A DNA stretch of 64,000 nt, from the NCBI RefSeq assembly GCF_029227915.1, contig NC_079877.1, forward strand, positions 4,402,001-4,466,000, in the 5' to 3' direction. The notes below the pieces were generated by a model. It had not been told where the DNA came from and made no database searches. It saw only the letters and a program-made list of their open reading frames with translations. A program made the position numbers and the translations under genes. This DNA is from Hydractinia symbiolongicarpus. Lineage: Eukaryota; Cnidaria; Hydrozoa; Anthoathecata; Hydractiniidae. Numbering within the stretch: position 1 is the first letter of the stretch; each line of letters starts with the position of its first letter. Shown one piece after another: positions 562-64,000 of the stretch.

Positions 562-3500
562 GTTGGTATAACTTTTCAAAATATATGCACTGTATTAGCA
601 AATATGATTAATTTAATGTTTGTTAAACACAGTGGTATATAATTTATTTTTTTTAATTTCCACTTACAATCAGAAGAAGTATTGTTTGTAGTTGATGTTT
701 GCAGTTGATAATAGTTTTTTAATTGCAAGAACTTTCTACTATTTAATTTAGTTGTTTCAGTATCAAGAAAATATGCATGTAACTCTCTTCGGATATTTAG
801 AGGACCATGTATTTTACAACAATGGTATAAATCCAGTGTTTCAACTTCAAATTTGATAATTATTTTATAGGATGTTGTAAACCACTTTATTTCCATTCAT
901 TTAATGATCAAACAACGTCAAAGAAGGAAAATGTTTTAAACTTAAAAATCATTCCAAATAACGCCTTCTCTTCTGGTAAATGCCACAAGTCATTGGATAT
1001 GGGTAAAGGCGATGTTACAGTTCAAACTCGTGGTCAACATTCGTTAGATGCACTTACATTTTCTTTATATTTTAAACTAAATCACATTAAAGGACTGCAC
1101 CCTATCATATCTTCTGTTAACTACAATACACAGTTAAGACTTGAAGTTCAAGATGGCAAGCTGGTGTGGATGTTTTACAATATCCGTAACAGCAAAGGCT
1201 TCATCGTATCTACACAAAGAATTCTAAAAGCAAACACATGGGTGCATATTTTAGTGGATTACGAAGCAAACGGAGGTGTTGGGAGAATATTTACAGATGG
1301 TGTATTCCAAACCAAAGTGTTGAGCCACGTCGCTTTAAGCAGTAATTGGATGCTTGGATTGAGAATTGGAAAGTATTACTCTGGTGGGTTGGATTACAAG
1401 ATGGACGGATATTTAGATGATTTGCATGTTTTTGATTGTGTGATGACTCTGCAACACATCCATGTTTTATCCAAGTCGTGTGGAGAGGTCATGTGTGATT
1501 CTGTTAAATTACAAGGTTAGTCTTGCATTGGAATTTATGAGATTGACATATGGAAACAATGCATTTGCAACCCAAAAATAGCATTCCCTGTGCCTTCAGC
1601 ATTTGTAAAAAACTGACATTTTCCAAATTATTGTGTCGATTTTATTTTAATTAATTTTGTTGGCAGCTGAAAATTGAATCAGGAAGAACTCTAACGTTGA
1701 CATTGAAACAGGACAAATTCTGTCTTTAAAGTTAAAGGACTAATTTAACTTTGTTACTTTTCTTTAAGGTCCAGATAAATTTGTGTTAGTGAAACAAACA
1801 AAAGAAAAAAGCACAGATACTGTAAGTCTCATTTCGTTGACTTCGAATTTTTCGAACTGATATTATCTCATGGTTGTAACAATAATCTTCTCTATTAAAT
1901 GAACATTTTGCATAAATATAATACATATCTTTATAGGTGGAAAAGAAAAAAGGAGGTGTCAATAAATGCAATCAAGCTGGTTCTCTTCCTAGTACACAAA
2001 CTGATAACAAATGCAGATGCAAGGTGAGAGTCTAACAACCATGACAAATTGGGCAATCATGACAAAAGTCAATTGAACTACCTTATTCTTCTGGATTAAA
2101 TAGGATTATTTCTCATTGTTTGTTTACTGTGATAAGTTATGTAATGGTTTAATATAAACATCTACAATTATGAGAAAAAATATAATGAAACAGGGCGACT
2201 AATTTAGAATTTTTTATGTCATAGTCCCGCATTTTACATTTTTCACAGTTTGATTATCAATATTCACAGCTGACATCGGATCTTAAGTTATTTCATTAAG
2301 CCTAAACTCTTAAAATGTGATAATTGTTGCTGACGTCAGCATGGCCATTTATCACGAATTTCTAGGTTTTCGCAGACCCTGACGTTGATTATTTCGTTAT
2401 TGCGTGCTAGCGATTGCGACTAGCAAATTATATATAGGATATCTGCCTGGTCTACGTTTGTGCAAAAGTTGCGACTTTGCAGCCTTTCGGCTGCATAGCA
2501 TAGACCATTTGTCGCTTTTTGCCACTTGAAAAAAGACGAGAAAACTTTGTCTCAATTTTTTTGTCCAAGATTGTAGTGTGTTTTAAAAATTGTGTCTCAA
2601 ATATATCAATTTTTATTTCATTTCTAGGATAATGTAAAAGGGAATTACTGCGATACTTGTGTGGCAGGGACATTTAACCTGCAACAAGAAAACAAATATG
2701 GCTGTCTGAAGTGTTTCTGTAATGGTCTTACAACTGACTGTAGAAGTGCAAAGCTGGAAAGAAAACAGGTAAGGTATAATTATGCGAAACACAATTACAT
2801 ACTTTGTATTTATTGCTTAGTGGTTAAGGTGTTAAGCTTTGTCTTAAGGTCTCCCACATATCCAGACCACAATTTTCATGAATTTAGTTTAGTGATCTAC
2901 GGCTGTTAGGATGAATGATTTTAATACCCAATTAAGTATGGCCGAAGGGTAAAGGGTTTAATACTCTTGAAAAGTTGCAAAAAATGGAGACAACTCGAAA
3001 ATTCCGACCTATTCGGAATTCCGTTCCGACCTATTTATTGTTTTTACAAACTAAATATGTAACAGCATAATTTCGTTAGTTTTATCAACAGCCTCTTTTT
3101 TTGGAAAAACCTTTTTTTTCTTTGTCCAGACTGTTTTAAATGCACAAGATATAAGAAACTTAAATCTCCGTACCATTGATGACAGCAAACTTTTGCAAGA
3201 CAACCTATTATACAACCCACTTACGAATTCAGTATCGTACAAGTACTCCAGCACATCAACTTTAACTGATATATACTATTGGGAATTACCATTGCGCTAT
3301 TGTGGTGACAAGGTAAGTGCTAGAAATTTTTTTTGCAGTGATTTACTTTTCACCTTTATGAAATGAAAAAATGTATTTGTATTTATATACTTAAATAAAC
3401 ATACATAATATTTTAAATTACAACTTAAATAATTTGTCTTTCAATAAATGATGCTTTTCTTTACCTTTTTAGCTTTCTGTAATGATTTTGTTTAGGTCTA

Positions 3501-6500
3501 CATACAATAACTAGAATTTACAGAGAACAGATTTAATCTGAATTTATTATATACTTATCTATATTAAAGTGTTGTATTTTCTATTTTTTCTGCTTTCACT
3601 GTATTTAGCTTGTGAAATTTATTTTATAAATTTAAGCGTATAAGTGTTTTACGAACAATTAGATAGATATTTTCTTTCTATACCAGCATATTAGAGTGCT
3701 AATTCTTGATGTTTAGGTAGCGTCGTATGGAGGTAATTTAAGATACACAATATCGTATCTTTCGCGACCAATTGATAAACCACTTTATGGTGCTGATGTC
3801 GTGCTAATGGTATGTCCTAAATTTTTTCGAATTTTAACCACAGAATAACCATCTCCTCTTGCTAAATATTATTTAAGTAGAATATTTTACGCTATTTCTC
3901 GTTTTGGTAAGAAATTTTTTGAATGTAAGGCGAATCACTAGAAGTTATACGGAATCTCTAATCTTCTTCCAATCCTTCTTTTTAATTCTGTCAAAATACG
4001 TGTCTCTGTTTAACAACGCATTTGGTAAATTAAAAAAAAAAAAACATTTAACCATCTGAACGTGATTTTTGGCTAAAATCTCGTCAAACTGATTTGTTTT
4101 TAGCTCTCTGAATTCTCATTTAGTTCTTCATTTAATTATATTTAACCTTCTAAATGGAAATCCTATTTTACACACGTTGTTTTTTTAGGGAAATAATCTG
4201 GAACTTCACTATACAGAACGAACTGATCCATTACCTGGTCAGCAACACTATTACCAAGTAATTCTTGATGAAGTAAGTTTTACGTTGATTTTAGTGGTCT
4301 CCCTTTATAGAAAATTGAAGCGATGTACCTCATAGCTTAGTGAAGAAATAGGTGTAGCAGGAATTATGTCAGATATTTGTTCGACTATTCTTCATAATTA
4401 AATAAGATTTTGTAAGCGTTTTTTAAAGGGTTTTGTTATAGAATCTTTTTACCAGTGTAAACATTTCTTTGGAAAGCACATATATTCGTGAAAGTAAAGC
4501 TTTTTCACATGAATTTTTAGAAATTTTGGAAGCACAGATCAGGTTACGAAGTATCTCGTGAAGAGATGATTATTGCTTTGGCTGGTATTAAATCGTTCTT
4601 GTTGCGTGCAACATTTAGCAGTGATATGATCGAAACAAAGTAAAGATTATTTCTTATCAAAACAACATATTATTTTTATTTTATGTGGTCGACCTCACCA
4701 ATTTTAAAGTAAATACCCTGTCAACTGATGCCAGGAGAATTCACCAAGGCTAGGCTTCACATGGATTTTTATTTCAAATTTTCTTACAGAGAAGCAAAAA
4801 AATTTTAACCAAGCTACCATAAGACTTTGTTAAATTTAAAATACACCAAAAAGCAAGAAACACATTTTGGCGCAGTACTAACCAACGTTTAGAACAAAAA
4901 CATTGATATCCACGAAACTCACTTACATTCTTTCACATTCTTTCACATTCTCTCACATTTTTTCACATTCTCTCACATTTTCTCACATTCTCTCACACTT
5001 GTTTGTTGTGTTTAGTTTGTATGAAGTACGCTTAGATGTCGCAGGTTATAATCCACTTTCGTCAAACGATCATGTGGCACCCATGGTCGAAGAATGTAAC
5101 TGCCCACCGCAATACTTTGGTACTTCTTGTCAGGTAGGCTATAATATCTGTTACAGATACTGAATAATATATTAAATCATGTGTTATTCCGCTGTACATT
5201 TGTAGCAACTCTAAGTTTATCTTTTTTACTGTCATCGCTGGCTAGTTTTCTTAGGGTAAATAACAAATTTAATTGCAATTTAAGTCTATTAAATTCATCC
5301 AGTGCTTGATTTTGATTGTCAAGCTGGCAATTAAGTTAAAGCTTCTCATGAGTATCCGTTTCAGTCATACAAATTATTAAATCCCTTTCAATATTGCTAT
5401 TCTGTTTTGAAAAAATTATTCCACAATATTTAGCATTGTAACAAAGGTTATACCAAAATAAAGAATGGAAAGTTACTTGGACGTTGCGAAGAATGCCAAT
5501 GCAATGGACATGCAGTAGATTGTGATGGTAAAACTGGTCAATGTCGGGTATGTTCAGCTAATCTGGTGATAGCTTGCATTAAGTTGGCAATAGATAAATT
5601 TCATCCAATGCTTTCGTGCTAAAGTTATAGAAACCTTACAAAATAAAAGGGCTATCAGAGAAAATATAATTTTTTTTTAAAAAAAAGCATGTACAGGTCA
5701 GGGCGAACTCTCCAAACAAAGTTACCGTTCCCCTTCAACTCAAAAATACCATTTTCAGGTTGTGGGTGTTGTGGTAAACTTTATGAGAATATTATAAGTA
5801 TTTTTTTTCCAAATCTTACACGTTAAACTTTTTTTATCAATTTATTTTTGCTTCTTTGTCACTTTCGCTTTTCTGCCGTTTTGAAGGTAGCCATATTTGT
5901 TTTTATTTGTTTGTTTTTTCACATTTCTTCGCTTTTAATTTATTATTGCTTTTTTTTGTAAAAACTTTTGACACGTTTTTTACATATTAGGCCTTCAAGA
6001 AAAATCTAGAGCAAAAGCCCCCGTTCTTGTTTCTTAAAATTCTACTACTTCTGGCTATTGCACATTTAATAGACGTCTTGCATTGCGATGAATTTTGAGA
6101 AGTTACTTCTCTTTTTTTTATCTAAATTTTATTTCTTCCGTAAAATCATTTATTTTCACAACACACTGGATTCATTATAGGACTGTCAGCATTACACCAC
6201 AGGTGCACACTGTGAGAAATGTGTACCTGGATACTATGGTGACCCACGTTCAGGTCAAATAGATGCTTGTAGGCCGTGCCCGTGTCCATTGTCGGTGAAA
6301 TCAAATCAGTAAGGAATTTTTATTTGCAAGAACTTTTTGTTAAATAAAACTGTACTTGTAAGTGGTTAACACCTAACTCAACCTGGCTAAATAATGTGTC
6401 GAATATCTGCTCAAATCTTTCCAGGTTCAGTTCAACTTGCGTGCTGGACACAGATGGTCAACCCACTTGTGACGCATGTAAACCAGGTCATACTGGAAGA

Positions 6501-50257: not shown

Positions 50258-52054
50258 ATGGCTGATAATTTTGTGACAGGAAATGGTGAAGAAGAAGACT
50301 TGATGGGAAATATTGAAAGTGATACCGGTTCAAAAGAAGCATCAGTCCCCCCACTTGGCATTTCTCGACCTAGCTTTCTAACTCAAGTAAGAACTTGTGC
50401 CACAATCCTTCTGCAATTTATTAATTCTCTAAGTCCAAGCACAGAAAATATAATTGCATTTTTTTGGGCTGCTTTGATATTTTTTATTGGTGTGATATTT
50501 GTTATCGCACAATACACATCCAGCTTATCAAATTTAGTCTTTGTATCTACATATTGGGTGTTGTTTACGTTTATTACCATTGGCATAATTGGAATGTCAG
50601 CAGCCATTGGAAATCGTAATAACTTAAATTTTATTAAAAAAAGTGTGGATGATCACGATGAACATCACGAGGAAACAGTTTCCAAATACCTAATAGGCAA
50701 TGCTTATGTATTTGCCACTGGTAATTTTTTGATTGATTTATTTTCCATTGCAACAGTTTTTCATTGCAGCTTGGGAACTAATATAGACCGTGATAAATAT
50801 GTAAACAAATTCATATTTCATTCTTCAAGAATAATCTTCACGTCGCTGCAGCTGATTTTTTTGCAAATATTCACTGGCGTAAAAATACAAAGAAAGTACC
50901 AACTTGTATTTAAAGTTTTAGTTGTACATCTTATAGCAACTAATTTTAACATATGGTTTACATTTTTGTGCCAAGAAACTGGAATATTATCAGGAGATAC
51001 CGAAGAAGGGACACACTCAGGTGAATATAATATCAGTTGTACATCGACACCTAATGATACAGTGTATGCAACGGCAAGATATATGAGCGAGGTTTTGCAG
51101 CCCTTTATTTTAGAATTTAGTTTATTGGCTGCATCTTTATTATATTCAATATGCCCGCTAAATTTAACAATTTCGCAACAAAGAAGTGATGGCAGGAGAA
51201 AATACAATTATGGAGCTGTCGATGTTGTTCAAAGAGACGATTCTAAAATATACAGATCTGATCCTGGTTTGTTGGTTGGTATTTTTGTTGCCTTGCTTTT
51301 AGTCATATCTTCGTGGAGCCTTGGTGACAAGAAGCATTTTATTTATGATATTCGCTTTAGTTATTACATGCAAATCATTATGCATATCTTAATTATAATG
51401 TGTTCTAGTATAGTTCTCTATGAACTTAAAACGTATCACAATAAAAAGCCACAAACAAGAAAATACAAAATCGATGATTACTTGTTGCTAATAACAGGTC
51501 CGTGCGGCTTCTTACCCTTTTTAATCACTGTTATCTTCTCGGTTTCTGAGGAGATAAGTCACGACAAACTGCGTCGTGTTCTTGAATACACGGGAGAAGA
51601 TATCTTAAAACATACAACTGAAATAAAAGTTTTATTAGGAGTCCTGAGCACCATTAATGTAATGTCAGTTCTTTTGCAAACATATTTCCTGTTAGAAGCA
51701 CACTCTTATGATCGAGCTCGCTTTTCCGCTATGAGTACACGGCGACATTCGTCAGATCTACCAGTGGAGACAGAACAACAAGAAAGGAAAAAGTTAAAAT
51801 CAGCTGCTCGCATAGGACAATGGCTAGTACTGTTACTGTTTGTAAACTTTGCTTTTTGGGTTACTGATTCATTTTTTGAATTAAGAAATGATTTGAAAAG
51901 AACTTACAGCGTTTCTTCGGCTTATTGGTCAAAGAGTACATGGAATCTTTTTGCAAAGTTTTTGTATCCAATTATTATTTTCTTCCGATTTCATTCAGTT
52001 GCTATGATTGCTCATATTTGGTTACATTTTCGTGTAAATAGAAAAAGCGCTTAA
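50258..52054 (+). CDS. OTOP-like: Otopetrin proton channel
   Basis: 598 aa in one uninterrupted exon; a TTTTTTTCAG acceptor at 50218 suggests a non-coding first exon upstream. Otopetrins are 12-helix plasma-membrane proton channels active in acid sensing and otoconia formation. Visible matches are the multiple hydrophobic helices (first about residues 62-84), the middle segment LLLITGPCGFLPFLITVIF, INVMSVLLQTYFLLEAHSYD, and the C-terminal helices WLVLLLFVNFAFWVTDSFFE and FLYPIIIFFRFHSVAMIAHI, where FRFHSV before an acidic or helical end is the usual otopetrin terminus. The N-terminal 40 residues are acidic and cytosolic. A loop at residues 245-270 is polar with Cys and N-glycosylation-type sites. 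AATAAA at 52385 is a plausible polyadenylation signal. Paralogue number cannot be assigned. Confidence 0.93.
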   Translation: MADNFVTGNGEEEDLMGNIESDTGSKEASVPPLGISRPSFLTQVRTCATILLQFINSLSPSTENIIAFFWAALIFFIGVIFVIAQYTSSLSNLVFVSTYWVLFTFITIGIIGMSAAIGNRNNLNFIKKSVDDHDEHHEETVSKYLIGNAYVFATGNFLIDLFSIATVFHCSLGTNIDRDKYVNKFIFHSSRIIFTSLQLIFLQIFTGVKIQRKYQLVFKVLVVHLIATNFNIWFTFLCQETGILSGDTEEGTHSGEYNISCTSTPNDTVYATARYMSEVLQPFILEFSLLAASLLYSICPLNLTISQQRSDGRRKYNYGAVDVVQRDDSKIYRSDPGLLVGIFVALLLVISSWSLGDKKHFIYDIRFSYYMQIIMHILIIMCSSIVLYELKTYHNKKPQTRKYKIDDYLLLITGPCGFLPFLITVIFSVSEEISHDKLRRVLEYTGEDILKHTTEIKVLLGVLSTINVMSVLLQTYFLLEAHSYDRARFSAMSTRRHSSDLPVETEQQERKKLKSAARIGQWLVLLLFVNFAFWVTDSFFELRNDLKRTYSVSSAYWSKSTWNLFAKFLYPIIIFFRFHSVAMIAHIWLHFRVNRKSA

Positions 52055-56305: not shown

Positions 56306-57124
56306 TAAGGTTACTGTACAGGAAACAATTTTTTTTTAGGTTTTTTGCAAAAAATTCATGACATATAGAAAAAAAAAATTATCTTTCGAATGACATATTT
56401 TATATTCCATAAAAATATTTGGAACATTCCTTTTTTCTGGAAAAAGCCTTTTTAGAGGTGTTATATCCTTCACACCTTCGAGAAAATATGTGCAAAATGA
56501 GTTGAGCATATTTTTGTAAACATTATGCATGATATGAAACTACCGTATAAATATATGCACAATAATATTTTTTAGATAGTTTACTTTCACCATCGGGAAG
56601 CATTGTTGATCTCATACAGAGCATGGGTATGTATTGATCAATTAATAATTGATTAAACACATGATAAACTCCCCTCACCCCTGAGCAACAACTTCAGAAT
56701 TCAACCCAAGATCCTTTGTATATTTTAAAAGGAAAAGGACCAAGCCAACTGCAAGAATGTGAAAGAGTACGAAGTTACATCAATCGTCCGTATTATATAC
56801 TTAAATTCAAAAGTGCTGCAATTCTTGTATGTACCACAAGCGTAACGCAACCAAATACACATAATTAGAGGCGCCAATTGAACTTGTCAAAGTTCACTTG
56901 TCCAATTATAGACTTAAGACTTAGGTCTTCAGGTTTTAGGTTACGTGATCATACTGTCAATGCGAAATTAAACAGCAAGAAATGCTCTAGACATATGCAG
57001 CGCGGTTTAGTATTATTATTATTATTATTAATACCAGGTAATCTTACGAGCATCATAAATCCTCTTATGACCATTGGCAACTACTGAAATGAGTATAAAA
57101 ATAAATAAATTAAAAACATCGTCT

Positions 57125-57197
57125 TGGAGGATCCGGGCATCGATCCCGGTACCTCTCGCATGCAAAGCGAGCGCTCTACCATGTGAGCTAATCCCCC
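57125..57197 (-). tRNA. tRNA-Ala (TGC), unit 1
   Basis: GGGGGATTAGCTCACATGG on the minus strand, anticodon loop TTTGCAT, B box GGGATCGATGCC, 3' end ATCCTCCA. Full cloverleaf. Confidence 0.95.
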
Positions 57198-57285
57198 TGG
57201 AAATGGTAAAAAGGTCATAGTTCGAGTGCTGTTCGCAATACTAAACTACACCTTACATGAGACACATTTCAGCTTACCTACCTTC

Positions 57286-57357
57286 AGCAGAGTGGCGCAG
57301 AGGAAGCGTGCTGGGCCCATAACCCAGAGGTCGGTGGATCGAAACCACCCTCTGCTA
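57286..57357 (+). tRNA. Initiator tRNA-Met (CAT), unit 1
   Basis: AGCAGAGTGGCGCAG start, GGGCCCATAACCC anticodon arm and initiator-type T loop GATCGAAAC. Confidence 0.97.
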
Positions 57358-57450
57358 CGTGCGAGCTATCGCATCATTTTAAAAACCACGTCATACTACA
57401 AACGTGACATGACCTGCATAGTCCTGCACAAGAACTGTACGATGCTACAT

Positions 57451-57544
57451 CCACCGATAGCTCAGTTGGTAGAGCGGAGGACTGTAGACGAACTTATACC
57501 ACTCAGGCATCCTTAGGTCGCTGGTTCAAATCCGGCTCGGTGGA
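57451..57544 (+). tRNA. tRNA-Tyr (GTA) with 21-base intron, unit 1
   Basis: CCACCGATAGCTCAGTTGG start and GGCTCGGTGGA end. The anticodon stem GAGGA/TCCTT is interrupted after GTAG by 21 bases (57489-57509), the standard position after nucleotide 37. Mature length 73. Confidence 0.95.
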
Positions 57545-57585
57545 CTTGCATTTTAGGCCTAAAATTTTGTGTGGCAGGGAAAAGT

Positions 57586-57692
57586 TGTCGGAAGTGGGAT
57601 TCGAACCCACGCCCTCATTCGAGGACCAGAATTCTCCACGCGATGAGTGGAAGAACATTTTGTCTTGAGTCTGGCGCCTTAGACCGCTCGGC
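57586..57692 (-). pseudogene. tRNA-Leu (CAA) split by transposon, 3' portion
   Basis: Minus-strand 3' part from GCCGAGCGGTCTAAGG through anticodon CAA, a 32-base intron and the end TTCCGACA. The 5' nine bases GTCGGGATG plus a second GCCGAG lie at 62606-62620 on the far side of the transposon. The break falls in the A box, so this copy should be dead. Confidence 0.93.
57687..57692. other. Target site duplication CTCGGC, left copy
   Basis: CTCGGC here and at 62606-62611 abut the transposon ends. The uninterrupted unit 2 has a single CTCGGC at 63908-63913. Confidence 0.95.
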
Positions 57693-57942
57693 TATGGAGT
57701 CATGTACTGGACAAAAGTCACGCTATAGAGTGTCGTGTTGCGTAGTAGAGTGTCGAGGTGCAATATAGATCCCAAGGTCGCGAGGCGTAGTATAGGTGGA
57801 CGCGAGGCGAAATAGAGAGTCGCGAGGCGTAATAGTGAGACGCGTATGTAATAATAGAGAGATGCGAGGCGTAATAGAAGGACGCGATGCGTAACAGAAG
57901 GACGCGTTGCGTGATGGAAAGACGCGCAAACAAGGGCGACGC
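57693..57942. repeat. Left terminal inverted repeat with degenerate 20-bp units
   Basis: The first 117 bases match the right end in reverse. From about 57780 there are some seven degenerate units of GCGAGGCGTAATAGANNGAC, of which only the outer few are close to consensus. Confidence 0.9.
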
Positions 57943-58879
57943 GGCGTGTAGGAAGAGGGGACGCGTACTTTCGCGCCATTTGCCTTGGTTACCCGTGAAT
58001 AAATTTCGAATTTTTTCAATTGACTGGCAAATTAATCAAGACAAAACACGAAAGAAAAAGTAAGTTTTTGTAGCAGCTGGGCTGACCGTTCTCTCTGATT
58101 TTTTCTCTCCTGTTTTTTTAATTTCTGCTGTATTATAGTTATATTCTGATAAATTGTGAGAAGTTGCTAATTCATAAGTATGTGTAGTAGTGAAGGGAAG
58201 CAATGTAGGGCAACGACGACATTTGTCAACACAGGTATAGCTGGCACCCCCCCCCCTCCTCATATATATTTTCTCATTAAAATTTGTAATGGGCTAGCTA
58301 TACTATTGCTATAAATAATGGATTATATTATTTGCCCTAGCAACTTTTACTTCCTTTTTTCCTTCCCTTGTATACACCACCAATCAACCCCCCTCCCCCT
58401 GCAACGAGGAGGGTGCCGATAAGCCGAAAAATGTTATTACACTGCTTGCATGCTATTCTGTTATAAGCAATGTGCTGTTTTTGTATTAATATTGTGTTTT
58501 GTATCACCATGTGATTACAATGTTTTGATAGGTAAACAGGGCAGCTTATAAAACAGAACGTAGGACTACGACTGGTAGTTAAATGGAACTGTGCGGTGCA
58601 TATGCATGTGTACAACAACACTGTCAACAGGTGTATTGTAATGATGGCAAATTTCTCAAGTTTTGGTTTTCTTCAAGTGACACTGCACCCATTTTCAAGA
58701 ATTTTAAATAATGCAGCAAATATGTACAATGTTCTTATTCGATTTTCCTTTAAGGATATTCTTAAGACATTTTTAAATTTTTGTCTTACTATCGTGAATA
58801 TTTATCGGCATGGTTGTAATTTTCAAAACTTTCAAGCTAAATTGTATGTGATGTTTTAGGAATTAAAAATTGATTCAGC

Positions 58880-59853
58880 ATGCAGAAAGTGAAAGACGCT
58901 ATAGACAGACTGAATAATGCATTGGATGGTCTGTCATCATCAACAACAAGTACTCAAAATAATCCAAATCAGAACATCTTCCAGAGTCCAAACTCACATC
59001 CAAGTCCAAACTTACATCCAAGTCCACAACATCAGAGAATTCTACAAGATTTCAAGTAGGTTGATATTTTTAAGAGTTGTGAATTTCTGCTCCCAGCATG
59101 ATCATTGCCTCCTTTGTATCTTTTCGATAAGTTTCAATAATCATCTCTCCAGGAGTACTGCTCACAGGCATTATGCTGATTGTGACTATTGAATTTTTTC
59201 GTGCCTTTGTACCTTTTTATAACATTTTTCATTTTTTTGATTTTGTTCAACTTTAATTTCTTTCTGTATACACTGAGTAGAAAGATTATTATGTTTGAGA
59301 CAGATTTTTATTTTAATTCTTGTTCTGTTTCAGTAAGCAATTTCCAGCGTTGAATGCTGGTGGTAGCCGATATCGCCCACAAGCAAAGAAACCACGTCTC
59401 TCTAATAACTTCATTAAGGACACATGGACCCATAAATTCTGTGCACTGAGCTACAAAGATACATCAGTTTCACCTAATACACGTGAATTAATGGAGCTAA
59501 ACCAAGTTGGTCTCGGAATTGAAAAAGTTGTTTTTCCTTCCAAAACTGGAACACATGCTATGCTTCTGGAAGAGTTAACAAAAGCTTATCCAAAATTATC
59601 ATCACAGAGTGGTGGCATTGAACTTCTGAGGGCTGAGAGTGGTGGAATAAACCGACCATTGGTGTTGATACCACCAAGAAAAGATGGTTATTCTATCAGC
59701 TATTTAAAAAATTTAGTACCCGGTCACGCTGTAATATACATCAGACCAGTGCAGAGCGACTTACCAATGGAGGAACCAACTATGGATTCAGTCCTATGCA
59801 AGAATTCTTCCAGTGATATACATACTTTTAATGATCAGATTGATTATGATTAG
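58880..59853 (+). CDS. Transposon accessory protein with G2E3/HECT-ligase-type N-terminal domain
   Basis: Two exons, 58880-59055 and 59334-59853, phase 2 junction, 231 aa. Residues 1-60 are Ser/Asn/Pro-rich with a repeated HPSPN/LHPSP motif. Residues about 80-195 match a pattern I know from fish and invertebrate 'G2/M phase-specific E3 ubiquitin ligase-like' proteins, just before their HECT domain: WTHKFCALSYKD, then VGLGIEKVVF, then AYPKLSSQSGGIELLRAE, LVLIPPRKDGYSISYLK and AVIYIRPVQSDLP. No HECT domain follows here; the frame stops at TAG. A basic RPQAKKPRL stretch near residue 70 could be a nuclear signal. It sits upstream of and parallel to the transposase. Its role in transposition is unknown; regulation of host factors or DNA binding is speculation. 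Confidence 0.75.
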
Positions 59854-60306
59854 TCTCGAATTTATGACTGACTTGTACGCTCCTTGAAGTCTATATATAC
59901 TGCACATGCATTTATAAGTTCGTCTTTTTGTTGTTCTATTTTGTTTGTTTTCTAACTTTTATATGGAAAAGATGTATGGTTATAGTCGTGATCAAGTTAC
60001 GCATTGCATTATCATTCAGCTGTGCTAACCAAGAAGATATTTTTCTTTTCTTTTTATTTCACAAGGGTTATGTTTGTTATTTTGTTCTTTATGTGAAAAA
60101 ATGTTCTACTTATATACGGTCGACTCACTCAGAGAAAGTTATTTAAAAACAGAACTGTTATCGTTAAGTAACTTTTAAACATATTTCGAACATTTTGGAG
60201 GGAATTTCGTCTGGCATTTTTAGGATTTATTGTATGATTAAACAAACAAGTGGTTTTGTTGACATTTCGTGTACTTATGCAGTACTTTTATTTTTCAGAA
60301 TATAAC

Positions 60307-61749
60307 ATGAATATACAACAATTGAGTCCAGTTGATTTTATTAAGAATTCTGTTGTTGATACATTGAAACTAATCCAGTCGTTATTGTCATCCTTTGTTG
60401 ACGCGAATACAGCAGATTTGGATTATCCTGTCTATAGACTTGATGAACTTTACAGCTTCTGCTCTAGAGCAGCTTTAGAGTATCCAGATGTTATAACCGA
60501 AAATGTACTGAGTAGTATTCATCAAGCATCAGTGATAATTCAATCAGTGAACAAAACTAGTAACGCGGAAACTGTACGGCACAAGATAGGCAGGCCTTCT
60601 TTCGATATACCTGAGGAAACTCTAAAAACTTTAGTGAGGTTGAATTTTTCGCAGACGGCAATAGCTGAAATGTTCGGAGTAAGTGCAAAAACTATTCAAA
60701 GAAGATTTAAAGAGTTTGATATTGAACCTAAATCGCACACTATGATTGGTGACGAGGAACTTGATGAACATGTCAAAAAAATTATTTCAGATTTTCCTAA
60801 CTGTGGCATACGTAGAATGAAAGGTTTTTTACTGTCTCATGGTTATCACATTCCTTGGAAAGTTGTTCGTGATAGTATGTGGCGGGTTGATCCATCAGGG
60901 CTATTGATGCGCTCGTTGCAACGTAATGTAGTTCGAAGAAGAAAATATAGTGTTGCAGCGCCAAGGTCATTGTGGCATATAGACGGCAATCACAAATTGA
61001 TAAGATGGTCGATAGTCATTCATGGCGGCATAGATGGGTATTCTAGGCGTCTAATGTTTCTGTCGTGCGGATCAAGTAACAAGGCTACTGTAGTACTCGA
61101 TTTATTTCTGACCGCAGTACAAAATTTTGGCTTGCCGTCGCGTGTAAGAGGAGATCATGGGGTGGAAAATGTAGACGTTGCTTGGTTTATGATATCAAGA
61201 CGAGGAAGTAATCGTGGTAGCTTTATCGCTGGGAAAAGTTGCCATAACCAAAGGATAGAGAGGTTCTGGAGAGATCTATTCCACGGCTGCACATACATAT
61301 ACCACAACATATTCACTTACTTGGAAGAGATAGGAGCCTTGGATATATCGAATGAGTTGCATTTGTTTTGCCTTCATTATGTTTTTATTCCAAGAATAAA
61401 TGCACATTTTCAAAGATTTATCCTGGGCTATGATCACCATCCTATCCGAACAGAGAGAAACCTTTCTCCTCTTCAATTATGGGAAAGAGGTTTGTTGTTG
61501 CAAAGGAGACCGTCAGAAGATGATATTGTCGATGACTGCGATTCATATGGTATAGATTGGAGTGTACCGAGTCATTATATCGAAACCCGTGACGATGCTA
61601 TTGTGGTTCCCGAGATAAATCATCCATTTCAAAGTAATGACTTATACCTGGAATTTTGTAGATCTAACGATCCAATGGCAAATTGCGATAACTTCGGTAT
61701 CGAAGTGTTTCTTCGAACTGTTCAGGTCGTAGAAAGTACATTGTCATGA
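60307..61749 (+). CDS. DDE integrase-core transposase
   Basis: 480 aa from the ATG just after a TTTTTCAG acceptor at 60298; an in-frame start at 60250 lies in what looks like the upstream intron. A helix-turn-helix of the resolvase/Hin type is at about residues 98-142 ([13 protein letters not shown] ... [20 protein letters not shown]). The integrase fold follows: [12 protein letters not shown] (Asp226), [15 protein letters not shown] (Asp283) and [10 protein letters not shown] (Glu318), so the catalytic triad is intact with 34 residues between the second Asp and Glu. The end includes [13 protein letters not shown] and [11 protein letters not shown], shared by the integrase-core proteins abundant in fish and cnidarian genomes. 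No frameshift or stop. AATAAA at 61884 is a candidate polyadenylation signal. Confidence 0.92.
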
Positions 61750-62260
61750 ACACCACTATTAGTTCACTCACAGAACTTTTGATTGAATTGCTTAACTTGA
61801 CATTAGTTACATTAGATACATTACAAAGAAGAAATTCAAACATTTTGTTCACTATATACGTACTAGATATTATGCTTAGGTAAAATAAAGCTCCTTCAGT
61901 TCTTCTAACCACGCGAAAAAATAGCCACAGCAGTAGTCATTTAATAAGTTCTTCCCGTGCCTAATTATAGAGCGCGCTCTTTTTTGTTTCCCCGTCCCAA
62001 CGTCGAAAAGTTGTATTATGCCCTGATCGAGGTTGTTATTCTGCTTATCATAACTCCCCTCTAATAGGCATATAATATACACGAGAGGTTATGATGAACT
62101 AGTAGCCCTTGTACACCAAGTATGGAATCTTTTTTTTTCATTTTTTCCTTTTAAAGTATTCATGACAAGAAAAAAGTGAAGATGTATGTAAGCGTAGTTC
62201 TTTCTCTGACACGGATCCTCCCATCACACATCTTATTACGCTCCGACTTTACACGTATTT

Positions 62261-62605
62261 CTATTACGCCTCGCGTCCTTCTATTACGCCTCGCGTCTCT
62301 CTATTACGCCTCGCGTCCTTCTATTACGCCTCGCGTCTCTCTATTACGCCTCGCGTCTCTCTATTACGCCTCGCGTCCTTCTATTACGCCTCGCGTCTCT
62401 CTATTACGCCTTGCGTCTCTCTATTACGCCTCGCGTCCTTCTATTACGCCTCGCGTCTCTCTATTATTACATACGCGTCTCACTATTACGCCTCGCGTCC
62501 ACCTATACTACGCCTCGCGACCTTGGGATCTATATTGAACCTCGACACTCTACTACGCAACACGACACTCTATAGCGTGACTTTTGTCCAGTACATGACT
62601 CCATA
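62261..62605. repeat. Right terminal inverted repeat with ten exact-length 20-bp units
   Basis: CTATTACGCCTCGCGTCCTT/CTCT repeats every 20 bases from 62261 to 62460 (ten units, variation almost only in the last four bases), then degenerate units to about 62520 and the terminal repeat to 62605. The units are contiguous, with no spacers. Confidence 0.95.
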
Positions 62606-62620
62606 CTCGGCCATCCCGAC
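62606..62620 (-). pseudogene. tRNA-Leu (CAA) split by transposon, 5' portion
   Basis: Reads GTCGGGATGGCCGAG on the minus strand, ending in the 6-base target duplication. Compare the intact gene at 63807-63922. Confidence 0.93.
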
Positions 62621-62688
62621 ATGACACGAACGCTGCTGCAAATTGCTCTGCGCAAATTTCATTCATTTTACGCCTATGGAAAAGGCAT

Positions 62689-62761
62689 TGGAGAACCCGG
62701 GCATCGATCCCGGTACCTCTCGCATGCTAAGCGAGCGCTCTACCATCTGAGCTAGTTCCCC
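62689..62761 (-). tRNA. tRNA-Ala (AGC)
   Basis: GGGGAACTAGCTCAGATGG on the minus strand, anticodon loop TTAGCAT, end TTCTCCA. Its 3' end is seen again at the right edge of the window (from about 63991), as part of unit 2. Confidence 0.95.
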
Positions 62762-62868
62762 ATCAAGTTTGCTTCGCCTTTGCCACTCCGCAAATGTTAC
62801 GTTATTCATCCTCTTTCGACAAGACATTGTGGTGAAAGTTAGTTCACCATCGTACCAAATAATTGTTA

Positions 62869-62941
62869 CGCCCGATGAGGGACTCGAACCCGCGACCCTC
62901 AGATTAAAAGTCTGATGCTCTACCGACTGAGCTAACCGGGC
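62869..62941 (-). tRNA. tRNA-Lys (TTT)
   Basis: Same 73-base sequence as 45277-45349, on the minus strand; full cloverleaf with anticodon loop CTTTTAA. Confidence 0.97.
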
Positions 62942-63014
62942 GTAAATCTGTATTCCCGGACAGTCCCGCGAACGCTACTGACGTGAAACGAAACATTGAC
63001 AAGATAAAAAGAAC

Positions 63015-63086
63015 CTCCCCGGCGGGGAATCGAACCCCGGTCTCCCGCGTGACAGGCGGGGATACTTACCACTATACTACCGAGGA
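63015..63086 (-). tRNA. tRNA-Asp (GTC)
   Basis: TCCTCGGTAGTATAGTGG on the minus strand, anticodon loop CTGTCAC, B box GGTTCGATTCC, end CCGGGGAG. Confidence 0.95.
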
Positions 63087-63345
63087 CGAGTTCATATTTA
63101 AATAATATGTTCGCGATGGCGTCAATGCCCGAATGCCACACGGTCGATCATGTTAAAAGCTGAAACTGTGTATACTGTCAATGCGAAATTAAACAGCAAG
63201 AAATGCTCTAGACATATGCAGCGCGGTTTAGTATTATTATTATTATTATTAATACCAGGTAATCTTACGAGCATCATAAATCCTCTTATGACCATTGGCA
63301 ACTACTGAAATGAGTATAAAAATAAATAAATTAAAAACATCGTCT

Positions 63346-63418
63346 TGGAGGATCCGGGCATCGATCCCGGTACCTCTCGCATGCAAAGCGAGCGCTCTAC
63401 CATGTGAGCTAATCCCCC
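63346..63418 (-). tRNA. tRNA-Ala (TGC), unit 2
   Basis: Same sequence as 57125-57197. Confidence 0.95.
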
Positions 63419-63506
63419 TGGAAATGGTAAAAAGGTCATAGTTCGAGTGCTGTTCGCAATACTAAACTACACCTTACATGAGACACATTTCAGCTTACCT
63501 ACCTTC

Positions 63507-63578
63507 AGCAGAGTGGCGCAGAGGAAGCGTGCTGGGCCCATAACCCAGAGGTCGGTGGATCGAAACCACCCTCTGCTA
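63507..63578 (+). tRNA. Initiator tRNA-Met (CAT), unit 2
   Basis: Same sequence as 57286-57357. Confidence 0.97.
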
Positions 63579-63671
63579 CGTGCGAGCTATCGCATCATTT
63601 TAAAAACCACGTCATACTACAAACGTGACATGACCTGCATAGTCCTGCACAAGAACTGTACGATGCTACAT

Positions 63672-63765
63672 CCACCGATAGCTCAGTTGGTAGAGCGGAG
63701 GACTGTAGACGAACTTATACCACTCAGGCATCCTTAGGTCGCTGGTTCAAATCCGGCTCGGTGGA
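63672..63765 (+). tRNA. tRNA-Tyr (GTA) with 21-base intron, unit 2
   Basis: Same sequence as 57451-57544, including the intron. Confidence 0.95.
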
Positions 63766-63806
63766 CTTGCATTTTAGGCCTAAAATTTTGTGTGGCAGGG
63801 AAAAGT

Positions 63807-63922
63807 TGTCGGAAGTGGGATTCGAACCCACGCCCTCATTCGAGGACCAGAATTCTCCACGCGATGAGTGGAAGAACATTTTGTCTTGAGTCTGGCGCCT
63901 TAGACCGCTCGGCCATCCCGAC
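63807..63922 (-). tRNA. tRNA-Leu (CAA) with 32-base intron, unit 2 (intact)
   Basis: 116 bases from GTCGGGATGGCCGAGCGG to TTCCGACA on the minus strand; CCAGACTCAAG is followed by a 32-base intron after nucleotide 37, giving an 84-base mature class II tRNA with a long variable arm. Serves as the empty-site reference for the transposon insertion in unit 1. Confidence 0.96.
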
Positions 63923-64000
63923 ATGACACGAACGCTGCTGCAAATTGCTCTGCGCAAATTTCATTCATTTTACGCCTATGGAAAAGGCATTGGAGAACCC
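63914..64000. repeat. Start of unit 2 distal half at window edge
   Basis: CATCCCGACATGACACGAAC onward matches 62612-62698, the sequence on the far side of the transposon in unit 1, confirming that the transposon is an insertion and that the array continues. Confidence 0.93.

What the first reader, a model, noticed from the sequence alone, without database searches (positions are those of the whole stretch)
57586..62620. Intact integrase-type DNA transposon inserted in the A box of a tRNA-Leu gene, with the empty site present in the same window
The ends abut exact CTCGGC copies, and the neighbouring array unit shows the uninterrupted site with one CTCGGC. Near-identical terminal repeats and an intact DDE triad point to a young, possibly active copy. 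The 6-bp target lies in the tRNA's GCCGAG (A-box) segment, so this may be targeting to a Pol III promoter or to a dispensable multicopy gene, as some retroelements do. One event cannot separate targeting from chance.
Basis: partly seen in the sequence, partly recalled or inferred. Interest (0 to 1): 0.8.

Follow-up and report, generated by a model that had tools for sequence, protein, structure and literature searches.

The report
Ordinary transposon that hit a tRNA
A young cut-and-paste transposon in a marine hydroid landed by one event inside one of many tRNA-leucine gene copies, and the other copies of the same transposon that were examined sit at unrelated places, so it does not aim strictly at tRNA genes.

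Summary
A 4,913-bp element (57693-62605) with near-identical terminal inverted repeats splits a tRNA-Leu(CAA) gene at nucleotides 10-15. It is flanked by CTCGGC duplications, and the identical empty site lies one array unit away. "Intact" is wrong: five sibling copies are 6,523-6,526 bp, and this one lacks 1,650 bp, which removes the CUE and HECT (E3 ubiquitin ligase) part of its first gene. The transposase frame (PF24764, DD56D34E) is whole.

Of 15 other sites with both ends, 0 are in a tRNA gene; 12 have 6-bp and 3 have 7-bp duplications, all of different sequence. The only other tRNA copy is identical, shares the 1,650-bp deletion, and lies exactly four array units plus one element away, so it is an array duplication.

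tRNA targeting is therefore not supported, although a weak bias cannot be excluded with 16 events. Termini, duplication length and transposase type fit the IS3EU/GingerRoot superfamily. The notable by-product is the HECT-ligase gene in full-length copies.

The parts
57693..62605 (+). Whole DNA transposon copy (4,913 bp), an internally deleted member of a 6.5-kb family
   Evidence: Termini TATGG..CCATA, inverted repeats; alignment with 16 other copies
57693..57824 (+). Left terminal inverted repeat, continuing into 20-bp subterminal repeats to about 57926
62474..62605 (-). Right terminal inverted repeat; 20-bp subterminal tandem repeats at 62260-62519
57687..57692 (.). Target site duplication CTCGGC, left
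62606..62611 (.). Target site duplication CTCGGC, right
57586..57692 (-). 3' part of the split tRNA-Leu(CAA) gene (with its intron)
   Evidence: 100% identical to the uninterrupted copy; joined flanks give tRNA-Leu(caa)
62606..62620 (-). 5' part (nucleotides 1-15) of the split tRNA-Leu gene
63807..63922 (-). Uninterrupted tRNA-Leu(CAA) gene at the end of the next array unit: the empty site
   Evidence: ARAGORN with introns gives 63805-63923; nucleotide 1 at 63922 by the acceptor stem
60307..61749 (+). Transposase, 480 aa from this Met, integrase core PF24764 (rva_4), DD56D34E
   Evidence: Pfam 2.9e-78; spacing
59317..59853 (+). Remnant of the first gene: about 150 residues identical to the HECT gene of full-length copies, then a 20-residue tail made by the deletion
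   Evidence: no Pfam match on the remnant
62612..63913 (.). One complete 1,302-bp unit of the tRNA array (Ala-AGC, Lys-TTT, Asp-GTC, Ala-TGC, Met-CAT, Tyr-GTA, Leu-CAA; the Leu gene runs 9 bp into the next unit)

Best explanation
This is a young, internally deleted copy of a small, recently active DNA transposon family that fits the IS3EU/GingerRoot superfamily, in Hydractinia symbiolongicarpus. Its integrase-type transposase cuts and pastes by staggered strand transfer, leaving 6-bp (sometimes 7-bp) duplications at sites with no evident shared sequence. One insertion fell by chance into one unit of a high-copy tRNA array, where losing one tRNA-Leu copy is tolerable. Later exchange within the array copied the block carrying the transposon. 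Shown: boundaries, duplication, empty site, siblings at unrelated sites, shared unique deletion of the two array copies. Inferred: cut-and-paste chemistry, tolerance, and duplication by unequal exchange rather than by assembly error.
For: 45 exact termini genome-wide. Joined flanks: 0 of 15 other paired sites in a tRNA, 15 different duplications, 12 of 6 bp and 3 of 7 bp. Rfam: no tRNA in 38 of 38 scanned flanks outside the array (40 such flanks were held); a half tRNA gene in L015 was detected as a positive control. The second array copy is 4,913/4,913 identical, shares the 1,650-bp deletion seen in no other examined copy, and lies 10,127 bp away = 4 x 1,302 + 4,913 + 6. tRNA-Leu(CAA) is multicopy: 40 of 40 scored matches are full length and identical (500 candidates). 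TAYGG..CCRTA ends and 6-bp duplications are what the literature gives for IS3EU.
Against: Under uniform insertion, the chance that at least 1 of 16 events hits a tRNA gene of these arrays is only about 0.15% (78 units) to 0.9% (445 units, an extent inferred from sparse hits); tRNA genes outside these arrays were not counted. A mild bias towards open or Pol III chromatin is therefore possible; the 95% interval for 1 of 16 is 0.2-30%. The site was also picked after the fact. The array runs into a 500-N gap, so the second copy could be an assembly effect.
Confidence: 0.9

Rival explanations
1. Sequence-specific targeting: the transposase recognises the tRNA A box (GCCGAG), as Dada transposons do, and uses multicopy tRNA genes as a safe haven.
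For: The insertion is in the A box at nucleotides 10-15, close to the nucleotides 8-13 used by many Dada families. A second array copy has the identical site.
Against: 0 of 15 other paired insertions in tRNA, none with GCCGAG as duplication. Many identical, uninterrupted tRNA-Leu sites are free (40 of 40 scored). The second array copy shares a unique deletion and an exact array spacing, so it is not independent.
Confidence: 0.02
2. Weak or indirect bias: the element prefers accessible chromatin or interacts loosely with Pol III factors, so tRNA arrays are hit more often than by area.
For: One hit in 16 events where about 0.0015-0.009 tRNA hits would be expected by area from these arrays.
Against: Single event, chosen after the fact; no tRNA found in the other examined flanks of up to 600 bp.
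Confidence: 0.08
3. Two independent insertions at exactly the same nucleotide of two array units four units apart, which would itself mean site specificity.
For: Two copies with the same CTCGGC duplication.
Against: Both carry the same 1,650-bp deletion, seen in no other examined copy, and the same 40 extra bp relative to the reference copy, and are 100% identical; spacing is a whole number of units plus one element.
Confidence: 0.03
4. Assembly artefact: the junction between element and tRNA-Leu does not exist in the animal.
For: The array is next to a 500-N scaffold gap and consists here of identical units, which are hard to assemble.
Against: A perfect duplication and a clean empty site are what transposition gives and chimeric joins do not; in the stretch C3:4440001-4494000 the only gap is 3.6 kb beyond the second copy. 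The HiFi read N50 of 13,241 is longer than the element.
Confidence: 0.03

Closest known systems
IS3EU / GingerRoot superfamily (Repbase; Kojima and Bao 2023, PMC10045372, parts 1-2 of 5 and passages read; PMC12730594 of 2025, passages read)
   Same: TA..TA termini (TATGG..CCATA), usually 6-bp duplications, TIRs over 30 bp, integrase-like DDE transposase without an HHCC zinc domain, accessory genes in some families.
   Different: Accessory gene in full-length siblings is a CUE-HECT ubiquitin ligase, whereas the TET-bearing fungal families carry alpha-kinase and TET/JBP genes; long TIRs with 20-bp tandem repeats. Transposase placement was not tested against labelled IS3EU sequences.
Dada superfamily (Kojima and Jurka 2013, PMC3706591, passages read; PMC8869645, section 4.2 and passages read)
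   Same: 6-7 bp duplications; tRNA genes including the A box used as sites.
   Different: Dada transposases carry a DxxH (or CxxH) motif and are related to hAT, MuDR, P, Kolobok and IS256; Dada families insert at the same site again and again. Neither holds here.
Pokey (Daphnia rDNA; mentioned in passages of PMC3706591; piggyBac kinship recalled)
   Same: A DNA transposon found partly in a multicopy RNA gene and partly elsewhere.
   Different: Pokey prefers 28S rDNA; here there is a single event in a tRNA gene.
TRE5-A of Dictyostelium (mentioned in passages of PMC3706591)
   Same: Mobile element associated with tRNA genes.
   Different: Retrotransposon, inserted at a distance from the gene through host proteins, not inside the gene.

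Membership tests
IS3EU/GingerRoot | TA..TA termini (TAYGG..CCRTA in rust fungi) | tested here: met
   TATGG..CCATA directly abuts the duplications in the window copy and at the 15 other sites. The copies were found by this terminus, so their sharing it is by construction; the fit to the published ends is not.
IS3EU/GingerRoot | Duplications usually 6 bp | tested here: met
   6 bp at 13 of 16 independent sites, 7 bp at 3
IS3EU/GingerRoot | TIRs longer than 30 bp | tested here: met
   132-nt arms, 97%; stated for the rust-fungus families only
IS3EU/GingerRoot | Integrase-like DDE core, no HHCC domain upstream | tested here: met
   PF24764 2.9e-78, rve 2.3e-05 below its cut-off; N-terminal matches only to helix-turn-helix models, below cut-off; no zinc-binding integrase domain listed; DD56D34E
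IS3EU/GingerRoot | Transposase falls in the IS3EU/GingerRoot clade | not tested
   No labelled IS3EU sequence was at hand
Dada | 6-7 bp duplications | tested here: met
Dada | D/CxxH motif between second D and E | tested here: not met
   Read by eye from the residues between D283 and E318
Dada | Recurrent insertion at one site of a multicopy RNA gene | tested here: not met
   0 of 15 other paired sites

The most novel reading that the evidence does not exclude
Full-length members of this family are two-gene transposons that carry their own CUE-HECT E3 ubiquitin ligase beside an IS3EU-type transposase, and the ligase acts in the element's life cycle (for example on transposase stability or host silencing). 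Copies like the one in the window, which lost the ligase but keep the transposase, are natural deletion variants.
Probability: 0.4. Interest if true: 0.45.

Novelty: new member of a known kind. Interest (0 to 1): 0.22.

Why it matters
If tRNA targeting had been true, an integrase-type DNA transposon outside Dada would have evolved the same safe-haven strategy. The genome-wide table does not support that. What remains useful is a very young, low-copy IS3EU-like family in a laboratory cnidarian, with a clean empty site and a ubiquitin-ligase passenger gene, which could be used to watch recent transposition.

Tried and rejected
Viral contigs: transposase protein, alignment A1 and the 18-bp terminus gave no relative. 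Genome contigs gave three short contigs (L001-L003) in a Cycloclasticus MAG from a sponge, probably host DNA; no paired TAYGG..CCRTA ends by the script's criteria and no tRNA there, so no target could be read.

Notes on scripts: the comparison of the joined flanks with the empty unit printed 'False', but only because the joined string ran 5 bases past the end of the window; the 387 bases that could be compared were all identical. One search printed the element one base too long at its left end; coordinates here follow.

Precise intron loss was considered for the 1,650-bp deletion, because the missing segment can be read as GT..AG. The 4-bp TCAG repeat at the breakpoints explains it equally well, and other copies have other internal deletions.

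A consensus target around the 6-bp sites was looked for: 13 sites, no strong column; no statistical test was made.

Not done: flanks of the 22 termini with 1-2 mismatches (the control pattern gave 9 matches in all) were not examined. The search for other related transposases and for other TA-ended insertions at the same tRNA-Leu site did not complete.

Dropped from the duplication count: five single termini (C1, C4, two on C10, C11), and a cluster of six termini on C10 (tandem and inverted partial copies). Their flanks were scanned for tRNAs only. Rfam scanned 40 of 42 flank loci; L039 and L052 were left out of that scan and were scanned by ARAGORN alone.

Papers: no paper in the library held HECT domain, DNA transposon, transposase and ubiquitin ligase together, nor HECT, transposon-encoded, DNA transposons and ubiquitin. 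One search asked for two of IS3EU, HECT and ubiquitin, found 5,343 papers and listed 3, none of which held IS3EU. One search found one paper with IS3EU and tRNA genes, seen in the listing only. These searches do not show that a HECT-bearing IS3EU is unpublished.
Full report
What is there. The window holds a 4,913-bp element at 57693-62605. Its ends are TATGGAGTC and GACTCCATA, with 132-nt terminal arms that are 97% complementary; 20-bp tandem repeats lie at 62260-62519. CTCGGC stands directly outside both ends. The sequence up to and including the left CTCGGC (56951-57692) is identical over 742 bp to 63172-63913, and the sequence from the right CTCGGC on (62606-62698) is identical over 93 bp to 63908-64000. 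The empty site is therefore in the same window. Joining the flanks with one CTCGGC reproduces the uninterrupted unit over all 387 bases that could be compared and gives a tRNA-Leu(CAA) gene with a 32-nt intron across the junction. The duplicated bases are nucleotides 10-15, inside the A box (position recalled). No chance model was computed for this; 742-bp identity on one side and a shared hexamer at a perfect empty site leave no room for chance.

Not intact. Copies elsewhere in the genome are 6,523-6,526 bp in five cases (L059, L060, L061, L073, L074). Aligned to L059, the window copy lacks positions 2098-3747 (1,650 bp) and has 40 extra bp and 2 substitutions in 4,873 aligned bases. In L059 the first gene reads 641 aa stop to stop; the 634 aa scanned carry a CUE domain (1e-05) and a HECT ubiquitin-ligase domain (5.4e-14). 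The window copy keeps only about the first 150 residues of it. The transposase frame (480 aa from the Met at 60307) is complete. It matches PF24764, an integrase core, at 2.9e-78, has D226, D283 and E318, and is identical over 479 residues in 10 of the 15 other paired copies.

Host. The largest contig of the genome that holds the window is 42,572,105 bp, exactly the largest scaffold given for Hydractinia symbiolongicarpus HSymV2.0 in PMC10411563 (passages read). The total held here is slightly smaller (480.9 Mb in 76 contigs, against 482.9 Mb in 84 in the paper), so the held file may be a trimmed version. The window is C3:4402001-4466000.

The 18-bp terminus has 45 exact matches in the genome (23 forward, 22 reverse; 0 for the reversed control pattern). 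They are 4 ends of two copies in the tRNA array, 30 ends of 15 other pairs, 5 single ends and a cluster of 6. Flanks of 42 stretches outside the window were fetched. For 16 pairs of ends besides the window copy the flanks were joined. One pair is the second copy in the same tRNA array. The other 15 lie at 15 unrelated sites, with duplications of 6 bp (12) or 7 bp (3), none of them CTCGGC/GCCGAG. 0 of 15 are inside a tRNA gene, and ARAGORN finds no tRNA gene in the 600 bp on either side of any of the 15. Rfam at E up to 0.1 on 40 of the 42 flank stretches found RNA matches only in the two stretches of the array copy, including the left half of the split gene as a positive control. The two stretches not given to Rfam were scanned by ARAGORN alone. 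With up to 2 mismatches there are 67 termini against 9 control matches; the 22 inexact ones were not followed.

The second array copy is not a second hit. It lies 10,127 bp downstream, which is four array units of 1,302 bp plus 4,913 plus 6. It is 4,913 of 4,913 bases identical, carries the same CTCGGC, and shares the 1,650-bp deletion that no other examined copy has. Copying of a block of the array after one insertion explains all of this. The six complete units around it and a 1,008-bp piece of a seventh are 100% identical. The array then runs into a gap of exactly 500 N at C3:4478351-4478850, so its true length and the number of disrupted genes are open.

How common is the target? Of 500 candidate matches of the tRNA-Leu gene 40 were scored and all 40 were full-length and identical. 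The same unit was found in all five places sampled between 8.385 and 8.883 Mb on C3 (complete or nearly complete units 97.8-99.6% identical) and at 3.352 Mb (96.8-98.6%). tRNA matches run from 8.380 to 8.960 Mb (63 scored of 49,105 candidates). If that whole stretch is array it would hold about 445 units. No exact terminus of this family lies there, so many identical target sites are free. By area, at least one hit of 16 in a tRNA gene of these arrays has a probability of about 0.15% (78 units) to 0.9% (445 units); tRNA genes elsewhere were not counted. That is small, and it tells against pure uniform insertion, but the event was chosen because it was in a tRNA gene. A mild bias cannot be excluded with one event: the 95% interval of 1 of 16 is 0.2-30%.

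Mechanism. The anatomy is that of a cut-and-paste DDE transposon: inverted ends, fixed short duplications, an integrase core with a helix-turn-helix-like N-terminus (matches below cut-off). Staggered strand transfer across 6 bp would give the duplications; this step is inferred from the family. The many different internal deletions among copies are the usual product of incomplete gap repair after excision (inferred). 11 of 14 other copies show 0-3 substitutions against the reference; L063, L064 and L070 show 35-128, which I take as misalignment beside their large deletions because their long left parts are 99.7-99.9% identical to the window copy. The family moved very recently.

Family. IS3EU is described with TA..TA ends and usually 6-bp duplications, and IS3EU and GingerRoot form one clade (PMC10045372). 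In rust fungi the ends are TAYGG..CCRTA with TIRs over 30 bp (PMC12730594). All of these are met. Clade placement of the transposase was not tested. Dada transposons do target tRNA genes, often nucleotides 8-13 in the A box, with 6-7 bp duplications (PMC3706591, PMC8869645). This element lacks their motif and their recurrence, so it is not a Dada and does not work like one in target choice.

Verdict. A well-read observation, a sensible hypothesis, and a negative answer to strict targeting. It is an ordinary young transposon that once hit a tRNA gene copy.

Noticed in passing
L059:1647-3572 (within C3:23042971-23049535); remnant at window 59317-59853: Full-length siblings of the transposon carry a 641-aa frame with CUE and HECT domains. 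Beside an identical protein, seven homologues at 33-41% identity were listed; whether those lie in transposons is unknown.
   Followed up: partly
G000 C3:8.380-8.960 Mb, also 3.352 Mb and 4.459-4.478 Mb (window 56951-64000): A 1,302-bp unit with seven tRNA genes is tandemly repeated. tRNA hits span about 580 kb, and all five places sampled there are this unit.
   Followed up: partly
G000 C3:4478351-4478850: The tRNA array runs into a 500-N scaffold gap, while the large array at 8.38-8.96 Mb is in the opposite orientation; this may be a scaffold order or orientation error.
   Followed up: no
C10:7938466-7954600 (L068, L069): Cluster of partial copies of the same transposon: head-to-tail copies with a 3,744-bp period that share ends, followed by a copy in inverted orientation.
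   Followed up: no
window, element position 2098 (about 59790): The missing 1,650 bp can be read with GT..AG borders (CAG/GT..CAG/TC), like an intron, although 4-bp microhomology explains it as well.
   Followed up: no
window 57451-57545 and 63672-63766: Called tRNA-Leu(tag) without introns, but tRNA-Tyr(gta) with a 21-nt intron when introns are allowed.
   Followed up: yes
window 50258-52051: Long uninterrupted otopetrin (proton channel) frame, PF03189 5.2e-18.
   Followed up: no
L001-L003 (LWTN01000118, 139, 127): Contigs of a Cycloclasticus symbiont MAG from a sponge encode relatives of this eukaryote-type transposase, probably sponge DNA in a bacterial bin.
   Followed up: no
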